Of a stretch of 64,000 nt of DNA, positions 14,921 through 64,000 are shown piece by piece. The notes under the pieces were generated by a model. The model was not told where the DNA came from. It did no database searches and saw only the letters and a program-made list of their open reading frames with translations. Where the stretch lies: contig CAMPDV010000312.1 of the NCBI GenBank assembly GCA_946699065.1, positions 1 through 64,000 on the forward strand. The letters run 5' to 3'. The translations under genes were made by a program, and so were the position numbers. This stretch comes from Loxodes magnus. Taxonomy: Eukaryota; Ciliophora; Karyorelictea; Loxodida; Loxodidae. Numbering within the stretch: position 1 is the first letter of the stretch; every line of letters starts with the position of its first letter.

Positions 14921-17511
14921 TCACCTGATGTATCTCTATTTTTCCTCCACACTCATTATAGTATTAACCATTTCACAATTCTAAAAACGCAATCCATAGT
15001 CAGCATATACTTTGCTCCAATCAGTCTAAAATAAATGTGGTGTGATAAATTTGAACTTACCTATTATTAGTTATTAGTATCTACTCCATTCAATAACCTT
15101 CCTATGTTCCATCTTCTAATGTTGTAATCTTTTGCTTAGTTATTCCAACGAGCTCCATTACTTGATACCAGTCATTAGTTGTCCCTAGATAATGATAAAC
15201 TACCCACACTGTCCGTATGACCCATAAGTACACAGATACACTATCCATTATTGATATTTCAGATTCTTAAGGTCTTGTCATGTGATCCAGATAAAATAAG
15301 CTTATTGTCCATTGAAAAAATAACTGATTCCACATGTGAAGTATGTCCCGAAAAGATCTTTGCACATTACTATGTCTTATAGTTCCATAGTCTCACCGTA
15401 TTATCATAACTTCCCGATACGATGAACTCTGAATCACTGGATATAGCCACAGCATATACATAACTAGTGTGACCACTCATGGTCTTACAGGTACCTGTCT
15501 TGACGTCCCATGGTATCACCGTATTATCATAACTTCCCGATACGATGAACTCTGAATCACTGGATATAGCCACAGATCATACATAACTAGGTTGACCACT
15601 CATGGTCTTACAGGTACCTGTCTTGACGTCCCATAGTCTCACCGTATTATCATTACTTCCCGATACGATGAACTCTGAATCACTGGATATAGCCACAGAT
15701 CATACATAACTAGGTTGACCACTCATGGTCTTACAGGTACCTGTCTTGACGTCCCATAGTCTCACCGTATTATCATAACTTCCCGATACGATGAACTCTG
15801 AATCACTGGATATTGCCACAGCATATGCATTACTAGTGTGACCACTCATGGTCTTACAGGTACCTGTCTTGATATTGTAGAGTCTGAGAGTTTTGTCAGA
15901 CGATCCAGATACTATTAAGTTAGCATCTGATGAGATGGCCACGGAAGTGACACGATTAGAGTGTCCAGTGTATATGTGTGGGTGTTCGGATGAGATTGAG
16001 GTAAGGTTAGCGTTTGCAAAATCGCAGTTTATAAATTTGGTATTGCGGAAGTTGGCGGTAGTTAGGTTGGAGTTTGAGAAATTGCAGGATGCGAATGTGG
16101 TGTCAGAGATGTCCGAGTTAATAAAATCAGTATTTGAGTAGTTTTAATTCACGAATTAGAAGTTCATGAAGTTCAATAAAGTTACACCGTTTGAAGCTGC
16201 TTACGATATTCCTTGTTGAGATCTACACAACTAGATTATCTAATATAACTTGACATGAATTTATTAGTCAGCTACTTATGGTAATTATAATAGAATTTAT
16301 ATTTAGTTAATCAAACCTGGCTTATTTAACGGATTGTTTTTCAAATTTTATATGTTGAAATTCTCTTCCTTTATCTAGTTTAGGAACTTATTTAAATTCT
16401 CGAACGTTAAATTTGAGAAATCTTATATTACGTACTTGATCAAGTTTTATTACTCTTAACATACTTAAATTACTTGGATTTCATTCTTGAAATCATTCTA
16501 TATATTCACTACTCTTTACTCTAATGCTTAAACTAACTCTCTGGTTTATATTATTTATTTTTCTTTTTATGATAGAACTAACTTAACTAAAGAATCTTTA
16601 ACTTGAATTTATTATTATTGCTATTATTAATCTATTACTTAATCTTAATTTTGGTTTTGATTATTTTAAGATTCTTATTTAATTTAACGATCATTATTTT
16701 TTGCACTTATCTAACCTTATTGTTAAACAACATGTTTTGATACTTAAAAACATCCTCTTATCACTTTAAATTGCTTGAAATACTTTTCTACTAACTAGTC
16801 TATCTTACTTAATGTTAAGAACTAACCATTGTCATTTTCTCTTAAATATGCAAACAGATTGAACATACATGTTTGAATATTATTTCTTAAAGTTTAAATG
16901 TCCATTTGTTGGTTCTACTCTCTCTTAAAATTTTCTATCTCTCGCAATATTTGCTAAAATTATTCATGAGCTTTACCATTTTATCCTTAGTTTTATTACT
17001 ACTAACTCGTCGCTAAGACCTATTACTATTACACTTGATTTGTGGCTTGAAGAGTAGATAAACGATTCAATAAATTCATTATTTTACTGTTACTAAGAGA
17101 AATTGAATTGATTAAAGTCTTAAATACTTACTGAACCGATAACGACTGTATATGTTTTATAAGCTGATCGCTGTCGTATATTATCTTTTTTATCATATGA
17201 AATTGATTCTATTTCTAATCATATTAGTACTATAACCACTTAAACTACTCATTGATTTGCACTTGATCAATTATCTCTTCTTATTGCTGCTATACTTCTT
17301 AATGAACATGCTCTTAAACTTGATACCCTTGTAACTCTTCAGGATTTATGTCATAGACTTAACGATGTACTTTGCATTTGATTTCTTAAGTAAATTAATA
17401 AACTGCTTTAAGACAAATTAAACATGAAATACAACCACATGGTATTTGCTTAGCTACTCTCTCGTCTTAATCGAATTGCTTTTTACAGTTTGGACACTGA
17501 TTGCTATCCAT
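14921..17511 (-). CDS. RING finger - coiled coil - pentapeptide - seven-blade WD40 protein
   Basis: Read with TAA/TAG as Gln and TGA as Trp, one frame runs from ATG at 17,511 to 15,061 (817 codons), plus a likely short last exon (15,025-14,921). Order: RING finger, residues 6-49, with C6-x2-C9, C25-x-C27-x2-C30-x2-C33 and C46-x2-H49; Gln/Lys/Glu-rich helical region to about 440; pentapeptide repeats about 447-506 (F or L every fifth residue); WD40 from residue 516. There are exactly seven blades, enough for a closed propeller. Blades 2-5 are near-identical to each other and to the giant array at 25-64 kb; blades 1, 6 and 7 are private. RING proteins of this layout (TRIM-like) are usually E3 ubiquitin ligases whose propeller binds the target; that role is inferred. 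The start is the first ATG ahead of the zinc ligands. I saw no frameshift, so it is probably functional. Confidence 0.88.
15026..15060 (-). other. Candidate 35-nt intron in the RING-WD40 gene
   Basis: On the minus strand the segment starts GTAAGTTC and ends TTTATTTTAG, matching GT-AG introns with a strong 5' site. It follows a TAA TAA TAG run. Joining its flanks keeps an open frame that reads protein-like (T-D-W-S-K-V-Y, then a helix-like stretch ending in E-E-K-Q-R-Y-I-R before a TGA at 14,921-14,923). The unspliced frame is also open under the reassigned code, so openness does not decide. The TAA TAA TAG run could instead be the real end of translation. Confidence 0.5.
15385..15872 (-). repeat. 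Four array-type WD40 blades inside the RING-WD40 gene
   Basis: This 488-bp stretch matches the 123-bp array family; at 15,385 and 15,872 identity with the array stops abruptly. Reading order (minus strand): S-N-A-Y-A blade with S-Y-D-N; Q-P-S-Y-V-W blade with S-N-D-N; Q-P-S-Y-V-W blade with S-Y-D-N and V-I-P-W; H-T-S-Y-V-Y blade with S-Y-D-N. The order of the first two, followed by another Q-P-S-Y-V-W blade, occurs in the array, for example at about 31,870-32,150. The two Trp here are TGA. The length is within 4 nt of four units, as expected if blades are exchanged in whole-unit steps. Confidence 0.9.
15995..16175 (-). other. Pentapeptide-repeat segment linking coiled coil and propeller
   Basis: Residues about 447-506 show the A/N-(D/N)-(L/F)-x-x rhythm: N-F-M-N-F, then N-T-D-F-I, N-S-D-I-S, T-T-F-A-S, C-N-F-S-N, S-N-L-T-T, A-N-F-R-N, T-K-F-I-N, C-D-F-A-N and A-N-L-T-S. 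Such repeats fold as a right-handed quadrilateral beta-helix. It directly precedes blade 1 (G-H-S-N-R-V). Confidence 0.85.
17362..17496 (-). other. RING-type zinc-finger segment of the RING-WD40 protein
   Basis: The ligand pattern is C-x2-C-x15-C-x-C-x2-C-x2-C-x12-C-x2-H, which fits the RING spacing rule. Two points depart from the commonest form: ligand 4 is Cys (motif P-C-G-C) where His is usual, and the last ligand is His. TAA and TAG lie within the segment as Gln (after F13, and before the E-I-K that precedes C46), so the finger is invisible in a standard translation. Confidence 0.8.
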
Positions 17512-17864
17512 TTATAAATATTAAAAGACAATTTAGTATATAGAAACTAATTATATTGAAATAAAAATTGATAAATTATTTTTATTATTTAAAAAAAAGA
17601 TTTAACATAAAAAAAATAAAAAATTTTAAAATAGAATTTTAAATATTAATAAGATACTCGAAATATTTTAGTATTATGAATTTAAAAAAAATTAAAAATT
17701 AAAACTTAAAGAAATATATAAAACTAAAATGTAAATAATTAAAAGTCAAATTCTAAAATATAATATAAGAATATTCTAAAAATATTATAATTAAGAAAAA
17801 AAAAATAAAGAAATATGATATCATAAAAAAAAATTCCAATATATAATTATAATATTTTAATGAC
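17512..17864. promoter_or_regulatory. AT-rich upstream region of the RING-WD40 gene
   Basis: About 350 bp of nearly pure A/T between the gene's ATG and the gag-like fragment. It must hold the promoter of the minus-strand gene, if the gene is expressed. I see no specific box that I can defend. Confidence 0.4.
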
Positions 17865-17880
17865 TTAAGTACAAAGAGAT
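17865..17880 (+). repeat. 16-bp direct repeat, left copy
   Basis: TTAAGTACAAAGAGAT, apart from the base before it, is found again at 18,706-18,721. The pair brackets the gag-like fragment and may be a target-site duplication or a transposon end. Confidence 0.6.
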
Positions 17881-18700
17881 GGTAAAAAAGATGGCGGAAT
17901 GGAACAAAGACTTTCTAGACTAAAAGGCTTCTCGTAGCTCCTTAGATCAATCTTTCCAGCTCTAATGAACTCCAACGAAGACAAAAAAGAAATAATATTG
18001 TAAAATCTCAGAAGAAAAATAATATCCATCCAAGATTTCAAAAAAAAAGATACACCTTTGAGCAACTTATGAACATAGATAAAAAGTCTCTTGTTTAAAT
18101 CATTTTTGATAACATTGATAAGGTAGAGAACCTCGAACATTACGTCATAAGTTTACAATAAGACTTATAAGATCATATCTAGGACGAGAGACCTCATAAT
18201 GAATTTGTGACCAAAGATGATATTAACAACAGATATTAAGAAATAGAATGCGATATAGTAAGAATTGATGAATAAATTGGAACAGATTTCTTAAAGTATG
18301 AAAACGCATTTTAATAAATAACGGAATTAAAAAAGAGACTAGGAAAATTAGAGGAATAAGATCTAAAAAGAACTAATGATTCAATGGTAATAGAAGAATA
18401 ACCTATGACGACAGAAAAAATTTTCAAGAAAAAATGTTATATATGCGGCAGTTTATTCCACTTATGAAAAAAATTGTAGGAGGAATTGGTAAATTAAAAA
18501 AAATATTTGGAAAGAACTGACAAATTTTTATCCTTCCTCGGATGGTTAGCTTTGAAGAAAAAAGAAAACTCCAAGACCATTCGGAAAGCTCGGAAGTGAA
18601 CTTGGGTGGAGACACCGGCGAGTTCGAGACCCTGTAAAAGGTAATGCAGGAAGTTATGGACCTATTAAGGAAACATTCCATTATCCATAAAATTTTTAAT
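17881..18700 (+). pseudogene. Broken gag/ORF1-like fragment with zinc-knuckle remnant
   Basis: Plus-strand reading with the reassigned code gives protein-like segments in successive frames. An N-terminal part contains M-E-Q-R-L-S-R-L-K-G-F; after a long A run near 18,045 the frame changes to E-Q-L-M-N-I-D-K-K-S-L-V and a long charged coiled-coil-like stretch rich in E/D/K/Q. Near 18,436 there is C-Y-I-C-G-S-L-F-H, the first three ligands of a CCHC knuckle, after which the frame changes again and continues to about 18,700. Coiled coil followed by a CCHC knuckle is the usual layout of LINE ORF1 and gag proteins. The last Cys ligand is missing. With at least two frame changes it is probably dead. 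It runs opposite to the LINEs at 20.5-25.1 kb. Confidence 0.5.
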
Positions 18701-18705
18701 TTAAT

Positions 18706-18721
18706 TTAAGTACAAAGAGAT
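18706..18721 (+). repeat. 16-bp direct repeat, right copy
   Basis: Second copy of TTAAGTACAAAGAGAT, 841 bp from the left copy. It is followed by an A-rich run on the plus strand, as would be expected just beyond an inserted retro-copy, but an A-rich context is common here. Confidence 0.6.
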
Positions 18722-19234: not shown

Positions 19235-19495
19235 ATGAAAATAATATTTGTATATATATTCGATGAGAAATTATTAAAAAAAATATATAAATTAAACAAA
19301 AAATGTTTTATAAAATCACAAAAAAAATTTATAAAACTTATATATTATAAGAATAAGAATGAAAATACTTTATTTATAACCACGTCATCTTTAAAAAAAA
19401 AAAAAATTCTTATTAAACTTAACAATAACTTCCCAATGAACCAGAAAAAAATGAAATGCTTCTTAAATATTCGAAACTTTAATATCAGAGACTAA
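19235..19495 (+). CDS. Doubtful small open frame
   Basis: An 86-codon frame starts at ATG and is Lys/Asn/Ile-rich, as any AT-rich random frame would be. Under the reassigned code the TAA at its end would be Gln and the frame would continue, so its length says nothing. No domain or motif was recognised. Kept only as a possible hypothetical gene. Confidence 0.12.
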   Translation: MKIIFVYIFDEKLLKKIYKLNKKCFIKSQKKFIKLIYYKNKNENTLFITTSSLKKKKILIKLNNNFPMNQKKMKCFLNIRNFNIRD

Positions 19496-25117: not shown

Positions 25118-26875
25118 CTAATGACCCACTATACTCATAATGCTAAAGATACCTCTCAAGACGTTCCATAGTCTCACCGTTTTATCATAACTTCCCGATA
25201 CGATGAACTCTGAATCACTGGATATAGCCACAGATAATACAGAATTAGTGTGACCACTCATGGTCTTACAGGTACCTGTCTTGACGTCCCATAGTATCAC
25301 CGTCTTATCTCCACTTCCCGATACGATGAACTCTGAATCACAGGATATAGCCACAGATAATACATAACTAGTGTGACCACTCATGGTCTTACAGGTACCT
25401 GTCTTGACGTCCCATAGTCTCACCGTATTATCTAAACTTCCCGATACGATGAACTCTGAATCACTGGATATAGCCACAGCATTTACACAACTAGTGTGAC
25501 CATTCATGGTCTTACAGGTACCTGTCTTGACGTCCCATAGTCTCACCGTCTTATCTCCACTTCCCGATACGATGAACTCTGAATCACTGGATATAGCCAC
25601 AGATCATACACAACTAGTTTGACCACTCATGGTCTTACAGGTACCTGTCTTGACGTCCCATAGTCTCACCGTCTTATCTCCACTTCCCGATACGATGAAC
25701 TCTGAATCACTGGATATAGCCACAGATAATACATAACTAGTTTGACCACTCATGGTCTTACAGGTACCTGTCTTGACGTCCCATAGTCTCACCGTATTAT
25801 CATAACTTCCCGATACGATGAACTCTGAATCACTGGATATTGCCACAGCATATGCATTACTAGTGTGACCACTCATGGTCTTACAGGTACCTGTCTTGAC
25901 GTCCCATAGTATCACCGTATTATCTCCACTTCCCGATACGATGAACTCTGAATCACTGGATATAGCCACAGCATTTACACAACTAGTGTGACCATTCATG
26001 GTCTTACAAGTACCTGTCTTGACGTCCCATAGTCTCACCGTATTATCATAACTTCCCGATACGATGAACTCTGAATCACTGGATATAGCCACAGCATATA
26101 CATAACTAGTGTGACCACTCATGGTCTTACAGGTACCTGTCTTGACGTCCCATAGTCTCACCGTCTTATCTCCACTTCCCGATACGATGAACTCTGAATC
26201 ACAGGATATAGCCAAAGCATTTACACAACTAGTGTGAACACTCCTGATCTTACAGATATCTGTCTTGACGTCCCATGGTATCACCGTCTTATCTCCACTT
26301 CCCGATACGATGAACTCTGAATCACTGGATATAGCCACAGCATATACATAACTAGTTTGACCACTCATGGTCTTACAGGTACCTGTCTTGACGTCCCATA
26401 GTCTCACCGTATTATCATAACTTCCCGATACGATGAACTCTGAATCACTGGATATTGCCACAGCATATGCATTACTAGTGTGACCACTCATGGTCTTACA
26501 GGTACCTGTCTTGACGTCCCATAGTATCACCGTATTATCTCCACTTCCCGATACGATGAACTCTGAATGACTGGATATAGCCACAGCATTTACACAACTA
26601 GTGTGACCATTCATGGTCTTACAAGTACCTGTCTTGACGTCCCATAGTCTCACCGTATTATCATAACTTCCCGATACGATGAACTCTGAATCACTGGATA
26701 TAGCCACAGATAATACAGAATTAGTGTGACCACTCATGGTCTTACAGGTACCTGTCTTGACGTCCCATAGTCTCACCGTATTATCATTACTTCCCGATAC
26801 GATGAACTCTGAATCACAGGATATAGCCAAAGCATTTACACAACTAGTGTGACCATTCATGGTCTTACAGATACC
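25118..26875 (-). pseudogene. WD40 array, 3' segment ending in a cut blade
   Basis: Fourteen blades in a frame shifted from segment 3 by a 1-bp loss in the unit at about 26,876 (GATACCGGCTTGACATCCC instead of GATACCTGTCTTGACGTCCC). The last unit diverges after R-L-W-N to V-L-R-G-I-F-S-I-M-S-I-V-G-H and stops where LINE A begins. W-N followed by I-F-S ... G-H recalls blade 5 of the RING-WD40 gene (W-N-Y-K-T ... K-I-F-S-G-H), so this was probably the C-terminal end of a similar gene, cut off by the LINE. Confidence 0.6.
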
Positions 26876-26876
26876 G

Positions 26877-29800
26877 GCTTGACATCCCATAGTCTCACCG
26901 TTTTATCTCCACTTCCCGATACGATGAACTCTGAATTACTGGATATAGCCACAGATAATACATAACTAGTGTGACCACTCATGGTCTTACAGGTACCTGT
27001 CTTGACGTCCCATAGTATCACCGTATTATCTCCACTTCCCGATACGATGAACTCTGAATCACTGGATATAGCCACAGATAATACATAACTAGTGTGACCA
27101 CTCATGGTCTTACAGGTACCTGTCTTGACGTCCCATAGTATCACCGTATTATCTCCACTTCCCGATACGATGAACTCTGAATCACTGGATATAGCCACAG
27201 ATAATACATAACTAGTGTGACCACTCATGGTCTTACAGGTACCTGTCTTGAAGTCCCATAGTCTCACCGTCTTATCTCCACTTCCCGATACGATGAACTC
27301 TGAATCACTGGATATAGCCACAGCATATACATAACTAGTGTGACCACTCATGGTCTTACAGGTACCTGTCTTGACGTCCCATAGTCTCACCGTCTTATCT
27401 GCACTTCCCGATACGATGAACTCTGAATCACTGGATATAGCCACAGCTGATACATAATCTGTGTGACCACTCATGGTCTTACAGGTACCTGTCTTGACGT
27501 CCCATAGTCTCACCGTATAATCTGCACTTCCCGATACGATGAACTCTGAATCACTGGATATAGCCACAGATCATACATAACTAGGTTGACCACTCATGGT
27601 CTTACAGGTACCTGTCTTGACGTCCCATAGTCTCACCGTATTATCTGCACTTCCCGATACGATGAACTCTGAATCACAGGATATAGCCACAGATAATACA
27701 GAATTAGTGTGACCACTCATGGTCTTACAGGTACCTGTCTTGACGTCCCATGGTATCACCGTCTTATCTCCACTTCCCGATACGATGAACTCTGAATCAC
27801 TGGATATAGCCACAGCATATACATAATGTGTGTTACCACTCATGGTCTTACAGGTACCTGTCTTGACGTACAATAGTCTCACCGTATTATCATAACTTCC
27901 CGATACGATGAACTCTGAATCACTGGATATAGCCACAGATCATACATAACTAGGTTGACCACTCATGGTCTTACAGGTACCTGTCTTGACGTCCCATAGT
28001 CTCACCGTCTTATCTGCACTTCCCGATACGATGAACTCTGAATCACTGGATATAGCCACAGATCATACATAACTAGGTTGACCACTCATGGTCTTACAGG
28101 TACCTGTCTTGACGTCCCATAGTCTCACCGTATTATCTCCCCTTCCCGATACGATGAACTCTGAATCACTGGATATAGCCACAGATAATACATAACTAGT
28201 GTGACCACTCATGGTCTTACAGGTACCTGTCTTGACGTCCCATAGTATCACCGTATTATCTCCACTTCCCGATACGATGAACTCTGAATCACTGGATATA
28301 GCCACAGATAATACATAACTAGTGTGACCACTCATGGTCTTACAGGTACCTGTCTTGAAGTCCCATAGTCTCACCGTCTTATCTCCACTTCCCGATACGA
28401 TGAACTCTGAATCACTGGATATAGCCACAGCATATACATAACTAGTGTGACCACTCATGGTCTTACAGGTACCTGTCTTGACGTCCCATAGTCTCACCGT
28501 CTTATCTCCACTTCCCGATACGATGAACTCTGAATCACTGGATATAGCCACAGATCATACATAACTAGGTTGACCACTCATGGTCTTACAGGTACCTGTC
28601 TTGACGTCCCATAGTCTCACCGTATTATCATTACTTCCCGATACGATGAACTCTGAATCACTGGATATAGCCACAGATCATACATAACTAGGTTGACCAC
28701 TCATGGTCTTACAGGTACCTGTCTTGACGTCCCATAGTCTCACCGTATTATCATAACTTCCCGATACGATGAACTCTGAATCACTGGATATTGCCACAGC
28801 ATATGCATTACTAGTGTGACCACTCATGGTCTTACAGGTACCTGTCTTGACGTCCCATAGTATCACCTTATTATCTCCACTTCCCGATACGATGAACTCT
28901 GAATCACTGGATATAGCCACAGATAATACAGAATTAGTGTGACCACTCATGGTCTTACAGGTACCTGTCTTGACGTACAATAGTCTCACCGTATTATCAT
29001 AACTTCCCGATACGATGAACTCTGAATCACTGGATATAGCCACAGCATTTACACAACTAGTGTGACCATTCATGGTCTTACAGGTACCTGTCTTGACGTC
29101 CCATAGTCTCACCGTCTTATCTCCACTTCCCGATACGATGAACTCTGAATCACTGGATATAGCCACAGATCATACACAACTAGTTTGACCACTCATGGTC
29201 TTACAGGTACCTGTCTTGACGTCCCATAGTCTCACCGTATTATCATTACTTCCCGATACGATGAACTCTGAATCACTGGATATAGCCACAGATCATACAT
29301 AACTAGGTTGACCACTCATGGTCTTACAGGTACCTGTCTTGACGTCCCATAGTCTCACCGTATTATCATAACTTCCCGATACGATGAACTCTGAATCACT
29401 GGATATTGCCACAGCATATGCATTACTAGTGTGACCACTCATGGTCTTACAGGTACCTGTCTTGACGTCCCATAGTATCACCGTATTATCTCCACTTCCC
29501 GATACGATGAACTCTGAATGACTGGATATAGCCACAGCATTTACACAACTAGTGTGACCATTCATGGTCTTACAAGTACCTGTCTTGACGTCCCATAGTC
29601 TCACCGTATTATCATAACTTCCCGATACGATGAACTCTGAATCACTGGATATAGCCACAGATAATACAGAATTAGTGTGACCACTCATGGTCTTACAGGT
29701 ACCTGTCTTGACGTCCCATAGTCTCACCGTATTATCTGCACTTCCCGATACGATGAACTCTGAATCACAGGATATAGCCAAAGCATTTACACAACTAGTG

Positions 29801-50800: not shown

Positions 50801-53800
50801 CTGGATATAGCCACAGATAATACAGAATTAGTGTGACCACTCATGGTCTTACAGGTACCTGTCTTGACGTCCCATGGTATCACCGTCTTATCTCCACTTC
50901 CCGATACGATGAACTCTGAATCACTGGATATAGCCACAGCATATACAGAACTAGTGTGACCACTCATGGTCTTACATGTACCTGTCTTGACGTCCCATAG
51001 TCTCACCGTATTATCATAACTTCCCGATACGATGAACTCTGAATCACTGGATATAGCCACAGATAATACAGAATTAGTGTGACCACTCATGGTCTTACAG
51101 GTACCTGTCTTGACGTCCCATAGTCTCACCGTCTTATCTCCACTTCCCGATACGATGAACTCTGAATCACTGGATATAGCCACAGATAATACATAACTAG
51201 TGTGACCACTCATGGTCTTACAGGTACCTGTCTTGACGTCCCATAGTCTCACCGTATTATCATAACTTCCCGATACGATGAACTCTGAATCACTGGATAT
51301 AGCCACAGATAATACAGAATTAGTGTGACCACTCATGGTCTTACAGGTACCTGTCTTGACGTCCCATAGTCTCACCGTCTTATCTCCACTTCCCGATACG
51401 ATGAACTCTGAATCACTGGATATAGCCACAGCTGATACATAATCTGTGTGACCACTCATGGTCTTACAGGTACCTGTCTTGACGTCCCATAGTCTCACCG
51501 TCTTATCTCCACTTCCCGATACGATGAACTCTGAATCACTGGATATAGCCACAGATCATACATAACTAGGTTGACCACTCATGGTCTTACAGGTACCTGT
51601 CTTGACGTCCCATAGTCTCACCGTATTATCTCCACTTCCCGATACGATGAACTCTGAATCACTGGATATAGCCACAGCATATACATAACTAGTGTGACCA
51701 CTCATGGTCTTACAGGTACCTGTCTTGACGTCCCATAGTCTCACCGTCTTATCTCCACTTCCCGATACGATGAACTCTGAATCACTGGATATAGCCACAG
51801 CATATACAGAACTAGTGTGACCACTCATGGTCTTACATGTACCTGTCTTGACGTCCCATAGTCTCACCGTCTAATCATTACTTCCCGATACGATGAACTC
51901 TGAATCACTGGATATAGCCACAGCATATACATAACTAGTGTGACCACTCATGGTCTTACAGGTACCTGTCTTGACGTCCCATAGTCTCACCGTTTTATCA
52001 TAACTTCCCGATACGATGAACTCTGAATCACTGGATATAGCCACAGATCATACACAACTAGTTTGACCACTCATGGTCTTACAGGTACCTGTCTTGACGT
52101 CCCATAGTCTCACCGTCTTATCTCCACTTCCCGATACGATGAACTCTGAATCACTGGATATAGCCACAGCATATACATAACTAGTGTGACCACTCATGGT
52201 CTTACAGGTACCTGTCTTGACGTCCCATAGTCTCACCGTATTATCATAACTTCCCGATACGATGAACTCTGAATCACTGGATATAGCCACAGCATATACA
52301 TAACTAGTGTGACCACTCATGGTCTTACAGGTACCTGTCTTGACGTCCCATAGTCTCACCGTATTATCATAACTTCCCGATACGATGAACTCTGAATCAC
52401 TGGATATAGCCACAGATAATACAGAATTAGTGTGACCACTCATGGTCTTACAGGTACCTGTCTTGACGTCCCATGGTATCACCGTCTTATCTCCACTTCC
52501 CGATACGATGAACTCTGAATCACTGGATATAGCCACAGCATATACAGAACTAGTGTGACCACTCATGGTCTTACATGTACCTGTCTTGACGTCCCATAGT
52601 CTCACCGTATTATCATAACTTCCCGATACGATGAACTCTGAATCACTGGATATAGCCACAGATAATACAGAATTAGTGTGACCACTCATGGTCTTACAGG
52701 TACCTGTCTTGACGTCCCATGGTATCACCGTCTTATCTCCACTTCCCGATACGATGAACTCTGAATCACTGGATATAGCCACAGATCATACATAACTAGG
52801 TTGACCACTCATGGTCTTACAGGTACCTGTCTTGACGTCCCATAGTCTCACCGTATTATCATTACTTCCCGATACGATGAACTCTGAATCACTGGATATA
52901 GCCACAGATCATACATAACTAGTGTGACCACTCATGGTCTTACAGGTACCTGTCTTGACGTCCCATAGTCTCACCGTATTATCATAACTTCCCGATACGA
53001 TGAACTCTGAATCACTGGATATAGCCACAGATAATACAGAATTAGTGTGACCACTCATGGTCTTACAGGTACCTGTCTTGACGTCCCATGGTATCACCGT
53101 CTTATCTCCACTTCCCGATACGATGAACTCTGAATCACTGGATATAGCCACAGATCATACATAACTAGGTTGACCACTCATGGTCTTACAGGTACCTGTC
53201 TTGACGTCCCATAGTCTCACCGTATTATCATTACTTCCCGATACGATGAACTCTGAATCACTGGATATAGCCACAGATCATACATAACTAGTGTGACCAC
53301 TCATGGTCTTACAGGTACCTGTCTTGACGTCCCATAGTCTCACCGTATTATCATTACTTCCCGATACGATGAACTCTGAATCACTGGATATAGCCACAGA
53401 TCATACATAACTAGGTTGACCACTCATGGTCTTACAGGTACCTGTCTTGACGTCCCATAGTCTCACCGTATTATCATAACTTCCCGATACGATGAACTCT
53501 GAATCACTGGATATTGCCACAGCATATGCATTACTAGTGTGACCACTCATGGTCTTACAGGTACCTGTCTTGACGTCCCATAGTATCACCTTATTATCTC
53601 CACTTCCCGATACGATGAACTCTGAATGACTGGATATGGCCACAGCATTTACACAACTAGTGTGACCATTCATGGTCTTACAAGTACCTGTCTTGACGTC
53701 CCATAGTCTCACCGTATTATCATAACTTCCCGATACGATGAACTCTGAATCACTGGATATAGCCACAGCATATACATAACTAGTGTGACCACTCATGGTC

Positions 53801-55868
53801 TTACAGGTACCTGTCTTGACGTCCCATAGTCTCACCGTATTATCTGCACTTCCCGATACGATGAACTCTGAATCACAGGATATAGCCAAAGCATTTACAC
53901 AACTAGTGTGAACACTCCTGATCTTACAGATACCTGTCTTGACGTCCCATAGTCTCACCGTTTTATCTCCACTTCCCGATACGATGAACTCTGAATTACT
54001 GGATATAGCCACAGCATTTACACAACTAGTGTGACCACTCATGGTCTTACAGGTACCTGTCTTGACGTCCCATAGTCTCACCGTATTATCTGCACTTCCC
54101 GATACGATGAACTCTGAATCACTGGATATAGCCACAGCATATACATAACTAGTGTGACCACTCATGGTCTTACAGGTACCTGTCTTGACGTCCCATGGTA
54201 TCACCGTCTTATCTCCACTTCCCGATACGATGAACTCTGAATCACTGGATATAGCCACAGATAATACAGAATTAGTGTGACCACTCATGGTCTTACAGGT
54301 ACCTGTCTTGACGTCCCATGGTCTCACCGTATTATCTCCACTTCCCGATACGATGAACTCTGAATCACTGGATATAGCCACAGCATATACAGAACTAGTG
54401 TGACCACTCATGGTCTTACAGGTACCTGTCTTGACGTCCCATAGTCTCACCGTCTTATCTCCACTTCCCGATACGATGAACTCTGAATCACTGGATATAG
54501 CCACAGCATATACATAACTAGTGTGACCACTCATGGTCTTACAGGTACCTGTCTTGACGTCCCATAGTATCACCTTATTATCATAACTTCCCGATACGAT
54601 GAACTCTGAATCACTGGATATAGCCACAGATCATACATAACTAGGTTGACCACTCATGGTCTTACAGGTACCTGTCTTGACGTCCCATAGTCTCACCGTA
54701 TAATCTGCACTTCCCGATACGATGAACTCTGAATCACTGGATATAGCCACAGATTATACATAACTAGGTTGACCACTCATGGTCTTACAGGTACCTGTCT
54801 TGACGTCCCATAGTCTCACCGTATTATCATAACTTCCCGATACGATGAACTCTGAATCACTGGATATAGCCACAGATAATACAGAATTAGTGTGACCACT
54901 CATGGTCTTACAGGTACCTGTCTTGACGTCCCATGGTATCACCGTCTTATCTCCACTTCCCGATACGATGAACTCTGAATCACTGGATATAGCCACAGCA
55001 TATACAGAACTAGTGTGACCACTCATGGTCTTACATGTACCTGTCTTGACGTCCCATAGTCTCACCGTATTATCATAACTTCCCGATACGATGAACTCTG
55101 AATCACTGGATATAGCCACAGATAATACAGAATTAGTGTGACCACTCATGGTCTTACAGGTACCTGTCTTGACGTCCCATAGTCTCACCGTCTTATCTCC
55201 ACTTCCCGATACGATGAACTCTGAATCACTGGATATAGCCACAGATAATACATAACTAGTGTGACCACTCATGGTCTTACAGGTACCTGTCTTGACGTCC
55301 CATAGTCTCACCGTATTATCATAACTTCCCGATACGATGAACTCTGAATCACTGGATATAGCCACAGATAATACAGAATTAGTGTGACCACTCATGGTCT
55401 TACAGGTACCTGTCTTGACGTCCCATAGTCTCACCGTCTTATCTCCACTTCCCGATACGATGAACTCTGAATCACTGGATATAGCCACAGCTGATACATA
55501 ATCTGTGTGACCACGCATGGTCTTACAGGTACCTGTCTTGACGTCCCATAGTCTCACCGTATTATCATAACTTCCCGATACGATGAACTCTGAATCACTG
55601 GATATAGCCACAGATAATACATAACTAGTGTGACCACTCATGGTCTTACAGGTACCTGTCTTGACGTCCCATAGTCTCACCGTATTATCATAACTTCCCG
55701 ATACGATGAACTCTGAATCACTGGATATAGCCACAGATAATACAGAATTAGTGTGACCACTCATGGTCTTACAGGTACCTGTCTTGACGTCCCATAGTCT
55801 CACCGTCTTATCTCCACTTCCCGATACGATGAACTCTGAATCACTGGATATAGCCACAGATAATACAT
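26877..55868 (-). CDS. WD40 array, open segment 3 (29 kb without frame change)
   Basis: About 236 consecutive blades with no length change; every boundary I compared is an exact multiple of 123 bp. Dozens of codons would be stops in the standard code: mostly TGA at residue 7 (V-W-S-V-A-I-S), TAG at residue 25 (D-Q-T-V), and TAA at residue 7 in two copies (50,695 and 54,754). If translated as one piece it would be over 9,600 residues. More plausible alternatives are a gene trimmed by somatic DNA processing, or an untranslated reservoir of blades. Contains the 6,273-bp perfect tandem duplication and other block repeats listed separately. Confidence 0.55.
31957..38340 (-). repeat. 51-unit block duplication, copy 1
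   Basis: This recurs at an offset of exactly 6,273 bp (51 x 123). The blade order and deduced blades are identical across eight successive landmarks (32,487, 32,802, 33,594, 34,032, 34,524, 35,139, 37,161, 38,268 against the same plus 6,273). The left limit is the S-N-D-N/S-Y-D-N difference at about 31,955 against 38,227; the right limit lies at about 38,340. I found no difference between the copies by eye, including the marker units with K-I-S. The duplication is either very recent or recently converted, or is an assembly repeat error. Confidence 0.85.
38230..44613 (-). repeat. 51-unit block duplication, copy 2
   Basis: Second copy of the block at 31,957-38,340, directly adjoining it with about 110 bp of shared unit overlap. 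Just past it, 44,614-45,350 repeats a shorter run of the same blades (the H-T-A-S-K-I unit followed by N-S-V-L/S-Y-D-N and so on), which points to repeated slippage at this spot. Confidence 0.85.
49235..51452 (-). repeat. 18-unit block, copy 1
   Basis: Matches 53,294-55,511 at an offset of 4,059 bp (33 x 123). The two long open stretches 49,342-50,568 and 53,401-54,627 encode the same 408 residues. Both copies carry the rare in-frame TAA (50,695 and 54,754), the rare V-R-P-W blade and the private A-to-G change TGGATATGGCC. The copies part at CCACTCATGG against CCACGCATGG on the right. Confidence 0.8.
53294..55511 (-). repeat. 18-unit block, copy 2
   Basis: Second copy of 49,235-51,452; see that entry. 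The 33-unit offset is not tandem: other blades fill the gap, so the copies were separated by later exchange or made by conversion. Confidence 0.8.
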
Positions 55869-55869
55869 A

Positions 55870-56851
55870 CTAGTGTGACCACTCATGGTCTTACAGGTAC
55901 CTGTCTTGACGTCCCATAGTCTCACCGTATTATCATAACTTCCCGATACGATGAACTCTGAATCACTGGATATAGCCACAGCATATACATAACTAGTGTG
56001 ACCACTCATGGTCTTACAGGTACCTGTCTTGACGTACCATAGTCTCACCGTATTATCATAACTTCCCGATACGATGAACTCTGAATCACTGGATATAGCC
56101 ACAGATAATACAGAATTAGTGTGACCACTCATGGTCTTACAGGTACCTGTCTTGACGTCCCATGGTATCACCGTCTTATCTCCACTTCCCGATACGATGA
56201 ACTCTGAATCACTGGATATAGCCACAGCATATACAGAACTAGGTTGACCACGCATGGTCTTACAGGTACCTGTCTTGACGTCCCATAGTCTCACCGTATT
56301 ATCATAACTTCCCGATACGATGAACTCTGAATCACTGGATATAGCCACAGATAATACAGAATTAGTGTGACCACTCATGGTCTTACAGGTACCTGTCTTG
56401 ACGTCCCATGGTATCACCGTCTTATCTCCACTTCCCGATACGATGAACTCTGAATCACTGGATATAGCCACAGCATATACAGAACTAGGTTGACCACGCA
56501 TGGTCTTACAGGTACCTGTCTTGACGTCCCATAGTCTCACCGTATTATCATAACTTCCCGATACGATGAACTCTGAATCACTGGATATAGCCACAGATAA
56601 TACATAACTAGTGTGACCACTCATGGTCTTACAGGTACCTGTCTTGACGTCCCATAGTCTCACCGTATTATCATAACTTCCCGATACGATGAACTCTGAA
56701 TCACTGGATATAGCCACAGATAATACAGAATTAGTGTGACCACTCATGGTCTTACAGGTACCTGTCTTGACGTCCCATAGTCTCACCGTCTTATCTCCAC
56801 TTCCCGATACGATGAACTCTGAATCACTGGATATAGCCACAGATAATACAT
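55870..56851 (-). CDS. WD40 array, open segment 2 (shifted frame)
   Basis: Eight blades between two identical 1-bp deletions. Relative to the usual AATACATAACTAG, one A is lost (AATACATACTAG) at about 55,869 and about 56,852. The two sites are 983 bp apart (8 x 123 minus 1), so one deletion arose first and was then copied by tandem duplication. The segment is intact in its own frame. Continuous translation across it would need frameshifting, correction of an assembly error, or separate use of segments. Confidence 0.5.
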
Positions 56852-56852
56852 A

Positions 56853-59800
56853 CTAGTGTGACCACTCATGGTCTTACAGGTACCTGTCTTGACGTCCCAT
56901 AGTCTCACCGTATTATCATAACTTCCCGATACGATGAACTCTGAATCACTGGATATAGCCACAGCATATACATAACTAGTGTGACCACTCATGGTCTTAC
57001 AGGTACCTGTCTTGACGTCCCATAGTCTCACCGTATTATCATAACTTCCCGATACGATGAACTCTGAATCACTGGATATAGCCACAGATAATACAGAATT
57101 AGTGTGACCACTCATGGTCTTACAGGTACCTGTCTTGACGTCCCATGGTATCACCGTCTTATCTCCACTTCCCGATACGATGAACTCTGAATCACTGGAT
57201 ATAGCCACAGCATATACAGAACTAGGTTGACCACGCATGGTCTTACAGGTACCTGTCTTGACGTCCCATAGTCTCACCGTATTATCATAACTTCCCGATA
57301 CGATGAACTCTGAATCACTGGATATAGCCACAGATAATACAGAATTAGTGTGACCACTCATGGTCTTACAGGTACCTGTCTTGACGTCCCATAGTCTCAC
57401 CGTCTTATCTCCACTTCCCGATACGATGAACTCTGAATCACTGGATATAGCCACAGATAATACATAACTAGTGTGACCACTCATGGTCTTACAGGTACCT
57501 GTCTTGACGTCCCATAGTCTCACCGTATTATCATAACTTCCCGATACGATGAACTCTGAATCACTGGATATAGCCACAGATAATACAGAATTAGTGTGAC
57601 CACTCATGGTCTTACAGGTACCTGTCTTGACGTCCCATGGTATCACCGTCTTATCTCCACTTCCCGATACGATGAACTCTGAATCACTGGATATAGCCAC
57701 AGCATATACAGAACTAGGTTGACCACGCATGGTCTTACAGGTACCTGTCTTGACGTCCCATAGTCTCACCGTATAATCTCAACTTCCCGATACGATGAAC
57801 TCTGAATCACTGGATATAGCCACAGATAATACAGAATTAGTGTGACCACTCATGGTCTTACAGGTACCTGTCTTGACGTCCCATGGTATCACCGTCTTAT
57901 CATGACTTCCCGATACGATGAACTCTGAATCACTGGATATAGCCACAGATGATACATAACTAGTGTGACCACTCATGGTCTTACAGGTACCTGTCTTGAC
58001 GTCCCATAGTCTCACCGTATTATCTGCACTTCCCGATACGATGAACTCTGAATCACTGGATATAGCCACAGCATATACATAACTAGTGTGACCACTCATG
58101 GTCTTACAGGTACCTGTCTTGACGTCCCATAGTCTCACCGTATTATCATAACTTCCCGATACGATGAACTCTGAATCACTGGATATAGCCACAGATCATA
58201 CACAACTAGTTTGACCACTCATGGTCTTACAGGTACCTGTCTTGACGTCCCATAGTCTCACCGTATTATCATAACTTCCCGATACGATGAACTCTGAATC
58301 ACTGGATATTGCCACAGCATATACAGAACTAGTGTGACCACTCATGGTCTTACAGGTACCTGTCTTGACGTCCCATAGTCTCACCGTATTATCATAACTT
58401 CCCGATACGATGAACTCTGAATCACTGGATATAGCCACAGCATATACATAACTAGTGTGACCACTCATGGTCTTACAGGTACCTGTCTTGACGTCCCATA
58501 GTCTCACCGTATTATCATAACTTCCCGATACGATGAACTCTGAATCACTGGATATAGCCACAGCATATACAGAACTAGGTTGACCACGCATGGTCTTACA
58601 GGTACCTGTCTTGACGTCCCATAGTCTCACCGTATTATCATAACTTCCCGATACGATGAACTCTGAATCACTGGATATAGCCACAGATAATACAGAATTA
58701 GTGTGACCACTCATGGTCTTACAGGTACCTGTCTTGACGTACAATAGTCTCACCGTATTATCATAACTTCCCGATACGATGAACTCTGAATCACTGGATA
58801 TAGCCACAGATAATACAGAATTAGTGTGACCACTCATGGTCTTACATGTACCTGTCTTGACGTCCCATAGTCTCACCGTCTAATCTCAACTTCCCGATAC
58901 GATGAACTCTGAATCACTGGATATAGCCACAGCATATACAGAACTAGTGTGACCACTCATGGTCTTACAGGTACCTGTCTTGACGTCCCATAGTCTCACC
59001 GTATTATCATAACTTCCCGATACGATGAACTCTGAATCACTGGATATAGCCACAGATAATACAGAATTAGTGTGACCACTCATGGTCTTACAGGTACCTG
59101 TCTTGACGTCCCATAGTCTCACCGTCTTATCTCCACTTCCCGATACGATGAACTCTGAATCACTGGATATAGCCACAGATAATACATAACTAGTGTGACC
59201 ACTCATGGTCTTACAGGTACCTGTCTTGACGTCCCATAGTCTCACCGTATTATCATAACTTCCCGATACGATGAACTCTGAATCACTGGATATAGCCACA
59301 GATAATACAGAATTAGTGTGACCACTCATGGTCTTACAGGTACCTGTCTTGACGTCCCATGGTATCACCGTCTTATCTCCACTTCCCGATACGATGAACT
59401 CTGAATCACTGGATATAGCCACAGCATATACATAACTAGTGTGACCACTCATGGTCTTACAGGTACCTGTCTTGACGTCCCATAGTCTCACCGTATTATC
59501 ATAACTTCCCGATACGATGAACTCTGAATCACTGGATATAGCCACAGCATATACATAACTAGTGTGACCACTCATGGTCTTACAGGTACCTGTCTTGACG
59601 TACCATAGTCTCACCGTATTATCATAACTTCCCGATACGATGAACTCTGAATCACTGGATATAGCCACAGATAATACAGAATTAGTGTGACCACTCATGG
59701 TCTTACAGGTACCTGTCTTGACGTCCCATAGTCTCACCGTCTTATCTCCACTTCCCGATACGATGAACTCTGAATCACTGGATATAGCCACAGCTGATAC

Positions 59801-62800
59801 ATAATCTGTGTGACCACTCATGGTCTTACAGGTACCTGTCTTGACGTCCCATAGTCTCACCGTATTATCATAACTTCCCGATACGATGAACTCTGAATCA
59901 CTGGATATAGCCACAGATAATACAGAATTAGTGTGACCACTCATGGTCTTACAGGTACCTGTCTTGACGTCCCATAGTCTCACCGTCTTATCTCCACTTC
60001 CCGATACGATGAACTCTGAATCACTGGATATAGCCACAGCATATACAGAACTAGTGTGACCACTCATGGTCTTACAGGTACCTGTCTTGACGTCCCATAG
60101 TCTCACCGTATTATCATAACTTCCCGATACGATGAACTCTGAATCACTGGATATAGCCACAGATAATACAGAATTAGTGTGACCACTCATGGTCTTACAG
60201 GTACCTGTCTTGACGTCCCATGGTATCACCGTCTTATCTCCACTTCCCGATACGATGAACTCTGAATCACTGGATATAGCCACAGATAATACAGAATTAG
60301 TGTGACCACTCATGGTCTTACAGGTACCTGTCTTGACGTCCCATAGTCTCACCGTATTATCATAACTTCCCGATACGATGAACTCTGAATCACTGGATAT
60401 AGCCACAGATAATACATAACTAGTGTGACCACTCATGGTCTTACAGGTACCTGTCTTGACGTCCCATAGTCTCACCGTCTTATCTCCACTTCCCGATACG
60501 ATGAACTCTGAATCACTGGATATAGCCACAGCATATACATAACTAGTGTGACCACTCATGGTCTTACAGGTACCTGTCTTGACGTCCCATAGTCTCACCG
60601 TATAATCTCCACTTCCCGATACGATGAACTCTGAATCACTGGATATAGCCACAGCATATACAGAACTAGGTTGACCACGCATGGTCTTACAGGTACCTGT
60701 CTTGACGTCCCATAGTCTCACCGTATTATCATAACTTCCCGATACGATGAACTCTGAATCACTGGATATAGCCACAGATAATACAGAATTAGTGTGACCA
60801 CTCATGGTCTTACAGGTACCTGTCTTGACGTCCCATAGTCTCACCGTATTATCATAACTTCCCGATACGATGAACTCTGAATCACTGGATATAGCCACAG
60901 ATAATACAGAATTAGTGTGACCACTCATGGTCTTACAGGTACCTGTCTTGACGTCCCATAGTCTCACCGTCTTATCTCCACTTCCCGATACGATGAACTC
61001 TGAATCACTGGATATAGCCACAGCATATACAGAACTAGTGTGACCACTCATGGTCTTACAGGTACCTGTCTTGACGTCCCATAGTCTCACCGTATTATCA
61101 TAACTTCCCGATACGATGAACTCTGAATCACTGGATATAGCCACAGATAATACAGAATTAGTGTGACCACTCATGGTCTTACAGGTACCTGTCTTGACGT
61201 CCCATGGTATCACCGTCTTATCTCCACTTCCCGATACGATGAACTCTGAATCACTGGATATAGCCACAGATAATACAGAATTAGTGTGACCACTCATGGT
61301 CTTACAGGTACCTGTCTTGACGTCCCATAGTCTCACCGTATTATCATAACTTCCCGATACGATGAACTCTGAATCACTGGATATAGCCACAGATAATACA
61401 TAACTAGTGTGACCACTCATGGTCTTACAGGTACCTGTCTTGACGTCCCATAGTCTCACCGTCTTATCTCCACTTCCCGATACGATGAACTCTGAATCAC
61501 TGGATATAGCCACAGCATATACATAACTAGTGTGACCACTCATGGTCTTACAGGTACCTGTCTTGACGTACCATAGTCTCACCGTATTATCATAACTTCC
61601 CGATACGATGAACTCTGAATCACTGGATATAGCCACAGATAATACAGAATTAGTGTGACCACTCATGGTCTTACAGGTACCTGTCTTGACGTACAATAGT
61701 CTCACCGTATTATCATAACTTCCCGATACGATGAACTCTGAATCACTGGATATAGCCACAGATAATACAGAATTAGTGTGACCACTCATGGTCTTACAGG
61801 TACCTGTCTTGACGTCCCATAGTCTCACCGTATTATCATAACTTCCCGATACGATGAACTCTGAATCACTGGATATAGCCACAGATAATACCTAATTAGT
61901 GTGACCACTCATGGTCTTACAGGTACCTGTCTTGACGTACAATAGTCTCACCGTATTATCATAACTTCCCGATACGATGAACTCTGAATCACTGGATATA
62001 GCCACAGCATATACATAACTAGTGTGACCACTCATGGTCTTACAGGTACCTGTCTTGACGTACCATAGTCTCACCGTTTTATCTCCACTTCCCGATACGA
62101 TGAACTCTGAATCACTGGATATAGCCACAGATCATACAGAACTAGGTTGACCACGCATGGTCTTACAGGTACCTGTCTTGACGTACCATAGTCTCACCGT
62201 ATTATCATAACTTCCCGATACGATGAACTCTGAATCACTGGATATAGCCACAGCATATACATAACTAGTGTGACCACTCATGGTCTTACAGGTACCTGTC
62301 TTGACGTACCATAGTCTCACCGTATAATCATAACTTCCCGATACGATGAACTCTGAATCACTGGATATAGCCACAGCATATACAGAACTAGTGTGACCAC
62401 TCATGGTCTTACAGGTACCTGTCTTGACGTCCCATAGTCTCACCGTATTATCATAACTTCCCGATACGATGAACTCTGAATCACTGGATATAGCCACAGA
62501 TAATACATAACTAGTGTGACCACTCATGGTCTTACAGGTACCTGTCTTGACGTACCATAGTCTCACCGTATAATCATAACTTCCCGATACGATGAACTCT
62601 GAATCACTGGATATAGCCACAGCATATACAGAACTAGTGTGACCACTCATGGTCTTACAGGTACCTGTCTTGACGTCCCATAGTCTCACCGTATTATCAT
62701 AACTTCCCGATACGATGAACTCTGAATCACTGGATATAGCCACAGATAATACATAACTAGTGTGACCACTCATGGTCTTACAGGTACCTGTCTTGACGTC

Positions 62801-64000
62801 CCATAGTCTCACCGTATTATCATAACTTCCCGATACGATGAACTCTGAATCACTGGATATAGCCACAGATAATACAGAATTAGTGTGACCACTCATGGTC
62901 TTACATGTACCTGTCTTGACGTCCCATAGTCTCACCGTCTAATCATTACTTCCCGATACGATGAACTCTGAATCACTGGATATAGCCACAGCATATACAT
63001 TACTAGTGTGACCACTCATGGTCTTACAGGTACCTGTCTTGACGTCCCATAGTCTCACCGTCTTATCATAACTTCCCGATACGATGAACTCTGAATCACT
63101 GGATATAGCCACAGCTGATACATAATCTGTGTGACCACTCATGGTCTTACAGGTACCTGTCTTGACGTCCCATAGTCTCACCGTATTATCATAACTTCCC
63201 GATACGATGAACTCTGAATCACTGGATATAGCCACAGATAATACAGAATTAGTGTGACCACTCATGGTCTTACAGGTACCTGTCTTGACGTCCCATAGTC
63301 TCACCGTCTAATCATTACTTCCCGATACGATGAACTCTGAATCACTGGATATAGCCACAGCATATACAGAACTAGTGTGACCACTCATGGTCTTACAGGT
63401 ACCTGTCTTGACGTCCCATAGTCTCACCGTATTATCATAACTTCCCGATACAATGAACTCTGAATCACTGGATATTGCCACAGCATATACATAATGTGTG
63501 TTACCACTCATGGTCTTACAGGTACCTGTCTTGACGTCCCATAGTCTCACCGTATTATCATAACTTCCCGATACGATGAACTCTGAATCACTGGATATAG
63601 CCACAGATAATACATAACTAGTGTGACCACTCATGGTCTTACAGGTACCTGTCTTGACGTACCATAGTCTCACCGTCTTATCATAACTTCCCGATACGAT
63701 GAACTCTGAATCACTGGATATAGCCACAGCATATACAGAACTAGTGTGACCACTCATGGTCTTACAGGTACCTGTCTTGACGTACCATAGTCTCACCGTA
63801 TTATCATAACTTCCCGATACGATGAACTCTGAATCACTGGATATAGCCACAGATAATACAGAATTAGTGTGACCACTCATGGTCTTACAGGTACCTGTCT
63901 TGACGTCCCATAGTCTCACCGTCTTATCTCCACTTCCCGATACGATGAACTCTGAATCACTGGATATAGCCACAGATAATACACAACTAGTGTGACCATT
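56853..64000 (-). CDS. WD40 array, open segment 1 (runs in from the right edge)
   Basis: With TAA/TAG as Gln and TGA as Trp the frame is open for about 7.1 kb, roughly 58 blades. In-frame TAG, TGA or TAA occur only at blade-surface codons, for example S-W-D-Q at about 58,880 (TGA and TAG in one blade), S-W-D-Y at about 57,778, and H-T-N-Q at 61,896. Blades here are dominated by N-S-V-L, S-Y-V-L and S-S-V-Y types with S-Y-D-N and S-G-D-K. The 5' end of any gene lies outside the window, so its N-terminal domain is unknown; by analogy with the gene at 14.9-17.5 kb it could be RING plus pentapeptide. Confidence 0.6.
59985..60970 (-). repeat. 8-unit internal duplication in array segment 1
   Basis: Blade order from about 59,000 to 61,500 repeats with a 984-bp step (8 x 123): the S-S-V-Y/S-G-D-K, N-S-V-L/S-Y-D-N, V-I-P-W and S-Y-V-L/S-Y-D-N series at about 60,000 reappears at about 60,985. 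The same eight-unit step is seen at 55,869/56,852, so eight units is a favoured exchange length in this part. Confidence 0.6.

What the first reader, a model, noticed from the sequence alone, without database searches (positions are those of the whole stretch)
15385..64000. Candidate receptor-diversification system: expressed propeller plus a 39-kb reservoir of variable blades
Blades 2-5 of the RING gene (488 bp, about four units) are the same sequence family as the adjacent array of about 316 units, with sharp homology borders at 15,385 and 15,872. Blades 1, 6 and 7 and everything upstream are private. Gene and array are on the same strand about 10 kb apart. Blade 4 of the gene (S-Y-D-N with V-I-P-W) is a pairing I did not find in the array, suggesting a shuffled product. 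This is the layout expected if the array donates blades to the gene by conversion or unequal exchange.
Basis: inference. Interest (0 to 1): 0.9.

Follow-up and report, generated by a model that had tools for sequence, protein, structure and literature searches.

The report
Hypervariable propeller genes beside blade arrays
In the genome of a single-celled ciliate, a large family of propeller-shaped, probably recognition-type proteins swaps the parts that should touch their targets, and several of these genes lie beside huge unread stocks of such parts; it looks like a home-made diversity system, but what it recognises and whether the swapping is directed are not yet known.

Summary
The window is contig C312 of a 705.7-Mb assembly that fits Loxodes magnus (macronuclear assembly 706 Mbp). 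The gene is RING-like, pentapeptide, then a 7-blade WD40 propeller. Blades 2-5 share the unit of an array read continuously to 94 kb and present at every spot sampled to 360 kb. Two copies have their longest exact match in their own sampled array (341 and 190 bp); a third ties; a fourth does not have its best hit in cis. The gene belongs to a family (93 pattern matches) whose blade backbone is homogenised while top-face codons diversify, as in fungal HNWD genes. Two diverged paralogs (C40, C1198) also have blade arrays about 9.5 kb upstream on the same strand, so gene plus array is a recurring layout. Blade exchange is well supported. The array looks untranslated and its young variants neutral. 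Directed or somatic donation is possible but not shown.

The parts
14953..17511 (-). RING-like / pentapeptide / 7-blade WD40 gene (ATG at 17,511; 3' end uncertain; the first in-frame TGA after the last blade is at 14,953-14,955)
   Evidence: translation with TAA/TAG=Q, TGA=W; Pfam WD40 7 stretches, E 7.1e-66; AlphaFold2 model of residues 501-800, pLDDT 88.8; best Foldseek hit 5yzv, TM 0.91
17365..17496 (-). RING-like cysteine cluster
   Evidence: Pfam zf-RING_UBOX E 0.055 and zf-RING_2 E 0.075, both below the curated cut-off: weak, RING is inferred
15994..16170 (-). pentapeptide repeats
   Evidence: Pfam PF13599 E 1.9e-6 (below its cut-off) over this stretch and PF00805 E 2.2e-6 (above its cut-off) within it
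15844..15966 (-). blade 1 (type shared with another set of genes)
   Evidence: 17 alleles absent from 1,885 array units; its pattern occurs at 13 other places at up to 2 mismatches
15385..15872 (-). exchangeable tract: end of blade 1 to most of blade 5, array-type
   Evidence: TRF; 0 private alleles in blades 2-4; 6.6-11% different between three copies of the locus
15532..15872 (-). 341-bp stretch identical to three places of the window's array
28510..28850 (-). candidate donor 1 (exact 341 bp; the 488-bp tract 28,363-28,850 differs from the gene at 10 sites)
31831..32171 (-). candidate donor 2 (exact 341 bp)
45484..45824 (-). candidate donor 3 (exact 341 bp)
25160..64000 (-). WD40-blade array, 123-bp units; continues to at least 94 kb and, by spot samples, to 360 kb of the 360,915-base contig
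56826..56947 (-). 122-bp (frameshifted) array unit; an identical one at 55,843-55,964 and a different one at 26,816-26,937
   Evidence: the array is not one open frame
15112..15348 (-). blades 6-7, not array type

Best explanation
This is one member of a large family of hypervariable WD40-propeller proteins in a karyorelict ciliate (Loxodes magnus by assembly size, code and content). Blades 2-5 of the family evolve in concert: ectopic gene conversion moves pieces of about 0.1-0.5 kb among genes and between a gene and the blade array that lies 8-10 kb upstream of several members. Selection keeps the codons at the top face of the propeller diverse. The arrays are untranslated satellites made of the same blade pool; they collect new mutations neutrally and serve as local donors, at least opportunistically. 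Shown: copies of the locus with near-identical upstream flank and N part but different blades; shared alleles; long exact gene-array matches; recurrence of gene plus array; diversity at contact codons; homogenised backbone. Inferred: that the exchange is gene conversion (seven blades and no indels between 17,511 and 15,100), that it runs mainly from array to gene, that the arrays are not translated, and that the protein is a recognition receptor, perhaps an E3 ligase.
For: Three contigs with the same locus: codons 1-350 identical, blades 1-5 pN 0.112-0.143; differences by segment. All 18 blades 2-4 of six family members have 0 alleles absent from 1,885 array units of the C312 group. Six copies, blades 2-4: codons 10, 12, 31, 32, 33, 35, 36 have pN 0.40 and pS 0.18; the other codons pN 0.028 and pS 0.024; the private tail pN 0.051 and pS 0.149: an older family under purifying selection with homogenised backbone and diversified contact codons. 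C40 is 9% different from C312 in the N part, 35 of 246 in the tail, 5 of 288 in the blade backbone. A 144-bp exact block lies in blades 1-2 of C2904 and blades 4-5 of C859. Longest exact array matches 341, 190, 113 bp. Array beside C40, C1198 and C859 as well. The four most diverse array codons are 10, 35, 12, 33; 10, 33 and 35 are D-1, R1-2 and R1 in the sense of PMC3419727 (passages); the quartet has the spacing (2, 16, 2) of the selected codons 7, 9, 25, 27 of Podospora WD40 units (PMC1805685, PMC2873952; passages). Array variants with up to 3 carriers are 17 of 61 synonymous (22% expected without selection) and lie in 32 codons; those with more than 20 carriers 6 of 55. 93 family pattern matches, reversed-pattern control 0.
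Against: Over whole blades pN does not clearly exceed pS in the three-copy comparison (pS 0.097-0.163); the excess is at contact codons, a set fixed after seeing the array. The neighbouring 80-bp satellite has equally clustered variation (Gini 0.82 against 0.80), so clustering alone proves nothing. The deficit of synonymous common variants is borderline (P 0.05). Only 3 of 9 whole blade units of the three locus copies have an exact copy in the sampled arrays (C312 2 of 3, C2904 1 of 3, C652 0 of 3; about 231 kb then sampled, 254 kb). C652 ties and C859 does not prefer its own array. Array samples per contig were unequal. No transcript or protein evidence.
Confidence: 0.72

Rival explanations
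1. Dedicated donor system: the arrays are maintained archives of silent cassettes that are donated to the gene by directed conversion, like lamprey VLR or Borrelia vls, possibly at each macronuclear development.
For: Gene plus upstream array on one strand at C312, C652, C2904, C859 and the diverged paralogs C40 and C1198; long cis matches in two copies; none of 1,885 array units carries the gene-private alleles of blade 1 or blade 5, as expected of one-way flow; array diversity sits at contact codons; 1,596 of 1,885 units keep D11, W17 and H30; four near-identical gene copies in a strain described as probably diploid and isolated from single cells (PMC11441545, passages).
Against: Young array variants look neutral; large satellites are ordinary in this genome (231 of 706 Mbp, PMC11441545 section 8); the layout may be shared simply because the loci are duplicates; no array seen for C1881 in a capped list; no recombination signal or enzyme identified.
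Confidence: 0.2
2. Plain satellite: the arrays are by-products of unequal crossing-over from blade DNA and do not influence the genes; gene diversity comes only from exchange among paralogs.
For: Satellites are abundant; higher-order repeat of 6,273 bp; blades are shuffled among genes.
Against: The C312 gene shares 341 bp exactly with its array but at most 62 bp with the five other gene copies compared; C2904 shares 190 bp with its array and at most 144 bp with a gene; the gene-array pairing recurs.
Confidence: 0.14
3. Old balanced alleles: the versions are long-lived alleles kept by balancing selection, changed by ordinary mutation rather than exchange.
For: Allorecognition loci often show this (recalled); blade divergence of 7-11% would be allele-like.
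Against: No difference in codons 1-350 and 400-490 immediately beside; alleles shared across paralogs and blocks at other blade positions.
Confidence: 0.05
4. Assembly artefact: Falcon primary contigs of an unphased diploid with satellites misassembled; the versions are consensus errors.
For: The authors name misassembly of tandem repeats (PMC11441545 section 8); the last 600 bases of C652 hold units in the opposite orientation.
Against: The gene lies 7.6 kb from the array in sequence that aligns well between contigs; all three versions are seven-blade frames without indels in 15,100-17,511.
Confidence: 0.05
5. The array is itself a giant coding gene.
For: 1,885 of 1,943 unit spacings are 123 bp.
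Against: 58 of 1,943 are not; a frameshifted unit occurs twice; the 5' edge on C74 shows no recognisable start domain in three frames read by eye; the 80-bp non-coding satellite also keeps its length.
Confidence: 0.02

Closest known systems
Podospora anserina HNWD/NWD genes (HET-D, HET-E, HET-R; WD40 units with high internal conservation)
   Same: near-identical WD40 units, concerted evolution within and between loci, diversity at the same four top-face codons (spacing 2, 16, 2), shuffled units (PMC1805685, PMC2873952, PMC12222747; passages)
   Different: no NACHT or HET domain in the Pfam lists seen; pentapeptide and RING-like part instead; seven blades in the copies read; 93 pattern matches (alleles may be counted twice) against a family of 10; megabase-class arrays of the same unit beside several genes; a ciliate
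Borrelia vls and lamprey VLR donor-cassette systems
   Same: an expressed-type gene beside an array of untranslated copies of its variable part; donor stretches in cis (search listings and starts of abstracts only; the rest recalled)
   Different: a satellite of 123-bp units rather than discrete cassettes; directed donation not shown; exchange among many paralogs as well
Tetrahymena LRR genes with tandem arrays of 90-bp exons
   Same: a ciliate, a repeat-protein family expanding through exact-length units, non-LTR elements nearby (PMC6564038, passages)
   Different: there the units are exons of LRR genes; no untranslated satellite of the variable part appears in the passages seen
Highly repetitive WD40 proteins (Hu et al. 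2017)
   Same: conserved repeats with diverse hotspot positions (PMC5587647, passages)
   Different: single proteins in the passages seen; no pool or satellite mentioned there
RING-coiled-coil-WD40 E3 ligases such as COP1 (recalled)
   Same: domain order
   Different: no sequence relation tested; RING match below cut-off; coiled coil not tested

Membership tests
WD40 propeller proteins | WD40 repeats forming a closed propeller | tested here: met
   7 stretches, E 7.1e-66; model pLDDT 88.8, pTM 0.87; TM 0.91 to 5yzv
HNWD-type WD40 with high internal conservation | near-identical repeats with diversity at the two codon pairs of the top face | tested here: met
   top four codons by diversity 10, 35, 12, 33; this quartet is the best of 41 cyclic placements; published codons 7, 9, 25, 27
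HNWD-type WD40 with high internal conservation | concerted evolution within and between loci | tested here: met
   backbone pS 0.024 against tail pS 0.149 over six copies
HNWD family proper (fungal NLR) | NACHT (and HET) domain N-terminal to the WD40 domain | tested here: not met
   residues 1-510 scanned: no such domain at E up to 1; so it works like HNWD but is not a member
RING E3 ligase | RING finger above the family cut-off | tested here: inconclusive
   E 0.055 and 0.075, below cut-off
donor-cassette conversion system (vls / VLR type) | untranslated copies of the variable part next to the gene | tested here: met
   also at C40, C1198 and C859; that they are untranslated is inferred from frameshifts
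donor-cassette conversion system (vls / VLR type) | donor tracts from the cis array found in the gene | tested here: inconclusive
   clear in 2 of 3 copies (341, 190 bp), tie in 1; C859 prefers C1059 and C2904 to its own array
donor-cassette conversion system (vls / VLR type) | conversion within a clone or somatic lineage, with its machinery | not testable with these tools
   no reads, strains or micronuclear assembly held
satellite DNA | long tandem array with higher-order repeats and neutral variation | tested here: met
   array through 94 kb and at 9 of 9 further spots; 6,273-bp higher-order repeat; variants with up to 3 carriers 17 of 61 synonymous

The most novel reading that the evidence does not exclude
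A unicellular eukaryote with an adaptive-like repertoire: about a hundred RING-like/WD40 recognition genes whose contact blades are rewritten by directed conversion, several of them with their own upstream blade archive of tens to hundreds of kilobases as donor, so that blades change within a clone, perhaps at each macronuclear development. Four near-identical gene copies with different blades in a strain reported as probably diploid and isolated from single cells leave this open.
Probability: 0.17. Interest if true: 0.95.

Novelty: new variant of a known kind. Interest (0 to 1): 0.82.

Why it matters
If right, the fungal way of making recognition diversity (WD40 units in concerted evolution, with variation at the same four contact codons) arose again in a ciliate, in a protein with another effector end and in a much larger gene family. 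The paired arrays lay out a receptor's blade pool in thousands of copies and make exchange between a gene and its neighbouring array directly measurable with existing long reads. It would also give karyorelict ciliates a concrete gene family for the study of recognition.

Tried and rejected
Giant coding array: rejected (58 of 1,943 spacings not 123 bp; no start domain seen at the C74 edge). Exact unit length as proof of coding: rejected, because the neighbouring 80-bp satellite keeps its length too. Clustering of variation as proof of selection: rejected for the same reason (Gini 0.82 against 0.80); I rely on which codons vary. Unequal crossing-over into the gene: disfavoured, since seven blades are seen in the six copies read and the 7.6 kb between gene start and array is present in the three locus copies. 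Targeted hypermutation: disfavoured, since variants with up to 3 carriers lie in 32 codons and none at 10, 33 or 35, though at those three codons most bases are already common. My own earlier reading that paralogs have no array (from, where 40 of 880 candidates were scored) was wrong: searches show arrays beside C40, C1198 and C859; I raised the odds of a dedicated donor system from 0.12 to 0.20, lowered the plain satellite from 0.22 to 0.14 and raised the novel case from 0.12 to 0.17 for that reason. Named relatives: a protein search gave 17 hits, all at 22-39% identity. Literature: no paper held has both 'Loxodes' and 'WD40'; the other searches for such a system listed nothing of the kind in the titles and abstract starts seen; only open-licence PMC papers are held. 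Genome-wide cis tests with the blades of C2904 and C652 were asked for and never answered.
Full report
WHERE IT IS. The window is G000:C312:1-64000 of an assembly of 705,730,643 bases. Loxodes magnus has a macronuclear assembly of 706 Mbp, 231 Mbp of it tandem repeats, and a code in which TAA and TAG are sense and TGA is W or stop (PMC11441545, passages and section 8; that TAA and TAG mean Q is recalled). The window fits: its gene reads with TAA/TAG=Q and TGA=W, and it holds two large arrays. The name is inferred; the assembly bears none.

THE GENE. On the minus strand from 17,511: a RING-like cysteine cluster (below Pfam cut-offs), a Q-rich middle part (coiled coil by eye, not tested), pentapeptide repeats and WD40 repeats (E 7.1e-66). 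A model of residues 501-800 has pLDDT 88.8 and matches WD40 propellers in the PDB, TM 0.91.

THE ARRAY. From 25,160 the same 123-bp unit is repeated: 315 units parsed in the window, 106 distinct. It is continuous to 94 kb, and nine of nine 600-base spots from 110 to 360 kb are array. The unit search (237 matches, about 150 listed, 40 of 1,731 candidates scored) listed nine contigs. Of 20 ten-kilobase pieces fetched from eight of them, 19 were array throughout and one, C2904:10000-19999, from 10,685 on. C74 shows the far edge at about 144.9 kb, with no start domain recognised upstream. Of 1,943 unit spacings, 1,885 are 123 bp.

C652 and C2904 carry the same locus. In 17,512-25,160 the pairs differ by 7, 9 and 14 substitutions plus small indels; codons 1-350 do not differ. 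Blades 2-5 differ by 32, 54 and 48 of 488 bases, and 15,873-16,035 by 52, 30 and 32 of 162. All three read as seven blades. In blades 1-5, residues at unit positions 10, 33 and 35 vary in 12 of 15 slots against 41 of 190 elsewhere. Other runs of difference (16,458-16,411; 15,283-15,209; 15,105-14,940) are outside the array-type tract and suggest further exchange with paralogs; so the 3' side of the gene is not constant in all copies.

DONORS. All alleles of blades 2-4 occur in the array, while blade 1 and blade 5 carry alleles that none of 1,885 units has. The longest exact match is in the own sampled array for C312 (341 bp; at most 159 elsewhere) and C2904 (190; at most 116); the C2904 value rose from 161 to 190 when a further 10 kb of its array was fetched as a test. 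C652 ties (113 and 112). For a fourth near-identical copy, C859, the best array hits lie on C1059 and C2904, then on C859 itself, against a strict cis rule. Exact whole units were found for 3 of 9 blade units. Samples per contig were unequal, 10-69 kb, 254 kb in all.

WHAT VARIES. The four most diverse codons of the array unit are 10, 35, 12 and 33, with 57% of all diversity, the best of 41 cyclic placements of this quartet. Codons 10, 33 and 35 are D-1, R1-2 and R1, the binding hotspots of the WD40 top face (PMC3419727, passages). Podospora WD40 units have codons 7, 9, 25 and 27 under positive selection: the same spacing. Array variants with up to 3 carriers are 17 of 61 synonymous, as without selection; those with 4-20 carriers 14 of 59; those with more than 20 carriers 6 of 55 (borderline, P 0.05), 19 of these 55 at codons 10, 33 and 35. 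So the standing diversity looks made under selection in translated genes and then stored, decaying neutrally, in the array. All four combinations exist at 296 of 683 site pairs and mean r2 is 0.007-0.038: blades are heavily recombined. Against: the 80-bp satellite next door is as clustered.

THE FAMILY. The N-terminal part has 40 scored matches of 556 candidates at 75-100% identity, four of them 99% or more. A pattern across the blade 1 border occurs at 93 places on 88 contigs, reversed-pattern control 0; in an unphased diploid assembly both alleles may be counted. The blade part of three further members was read (C859, C1881, C40), all with intact blades in the stretch read. In blades 2-4 of six copies, codons 10, 12, 31-33, 35 and 36 have pN 0.40 and pS 0.18, the others pN 0.028 and pS 0.024, the private tail pN 0.051 and pS 0.149. 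A 144-bp block is shared between blades 1-2 of C2904 and blades 4-5 of C859. The C312 blade 1 type occurs at 13 other places.

THE LAYOUT RECURS. With C40 blades as query (40 of 751 candidates scored, about 150 of 160 matches listed) the list holds many matches on C40:1,147,149-1,198,111 (+), upstream of the C40 gene at 1,207,725 (+), and on C1198:15,126-29,821 (-), upstream of the C1198 gene at 4,130-5,637 (-); spacing follows the 123-bp unit. The nearest listed matches are 9.6 and 9.5 kb from the gene starts, against 7.6 kb in C312. These lists hold C40 and C1198 arrays but none of the C312 group, and the list for C312 blades the reverse: arrays look locus-specific, within capped lists. C859 has array matches at 33.8-46.0 kb, and C1059 is a further array contig. 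With C1881 blades no array was listed (40 of 880 candidates scored; 41 rows on 40 contigs).

CONCLUSION. A large family of hypervariable propeller proteins is diversified by blade exchange and by selection on contact residues. Several members lie beside upstream satellites of the same blades and exchange with them. Whether donation is directed, whether it is somatic, and what the proteins recognise remain open.

Noticed in passing
window 1-12767: An 80-bp satellite of about 160 units (94% match) runs off the contig start downstream of the gene; C652 starts with the same satellite.
   Followed up: partly
93 pattern matches: Family genes tend to face contig ends with their 3' side: minus-strand hits have a median coordinate of 9.8 kb (59 of 66 below 45 kb), plus-strand hits 108 kb (27 hits); C103 and C121 each have a minus hit at low and a plus hit at high coordinate (contig lengths not obtained). 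This suggests a subtelomeric or satellite-flanked home.
   Followed up: partly
window 23100-23753 (-): Reverse transcriptase domain (RVT_1, E 6.4e-26) of a retroelement between gene and array.
   Followed up: no
G000:C652:205790-206389 and C2245 ends: The last 600 bases of C652 hold array units in the opposite orientation to the rest; the two ends of C2245 also differ in orientation. Inversion or misassembly.
   Followed up: no
L073 (C74:150001-153000, +): A diverged WD40 gene with TGA at W positions about 5 kb beyond the far edge of the array, not of array type.
   Followed up: no
window 32806-33594 and 39079-39867: Higher-order repeat of 6,273 bp (51 units) with matching unit series; the 80-bp satellite shows one of 4,160 bp (1405-1922 and 5565-6082).
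   Followed up: partly
G000:C1059, about 94-141 kb (+): A further blade array contig, holding the best array hits of the C859 gene; whether a family gene lies beside it was not checked.
   Followed up: no
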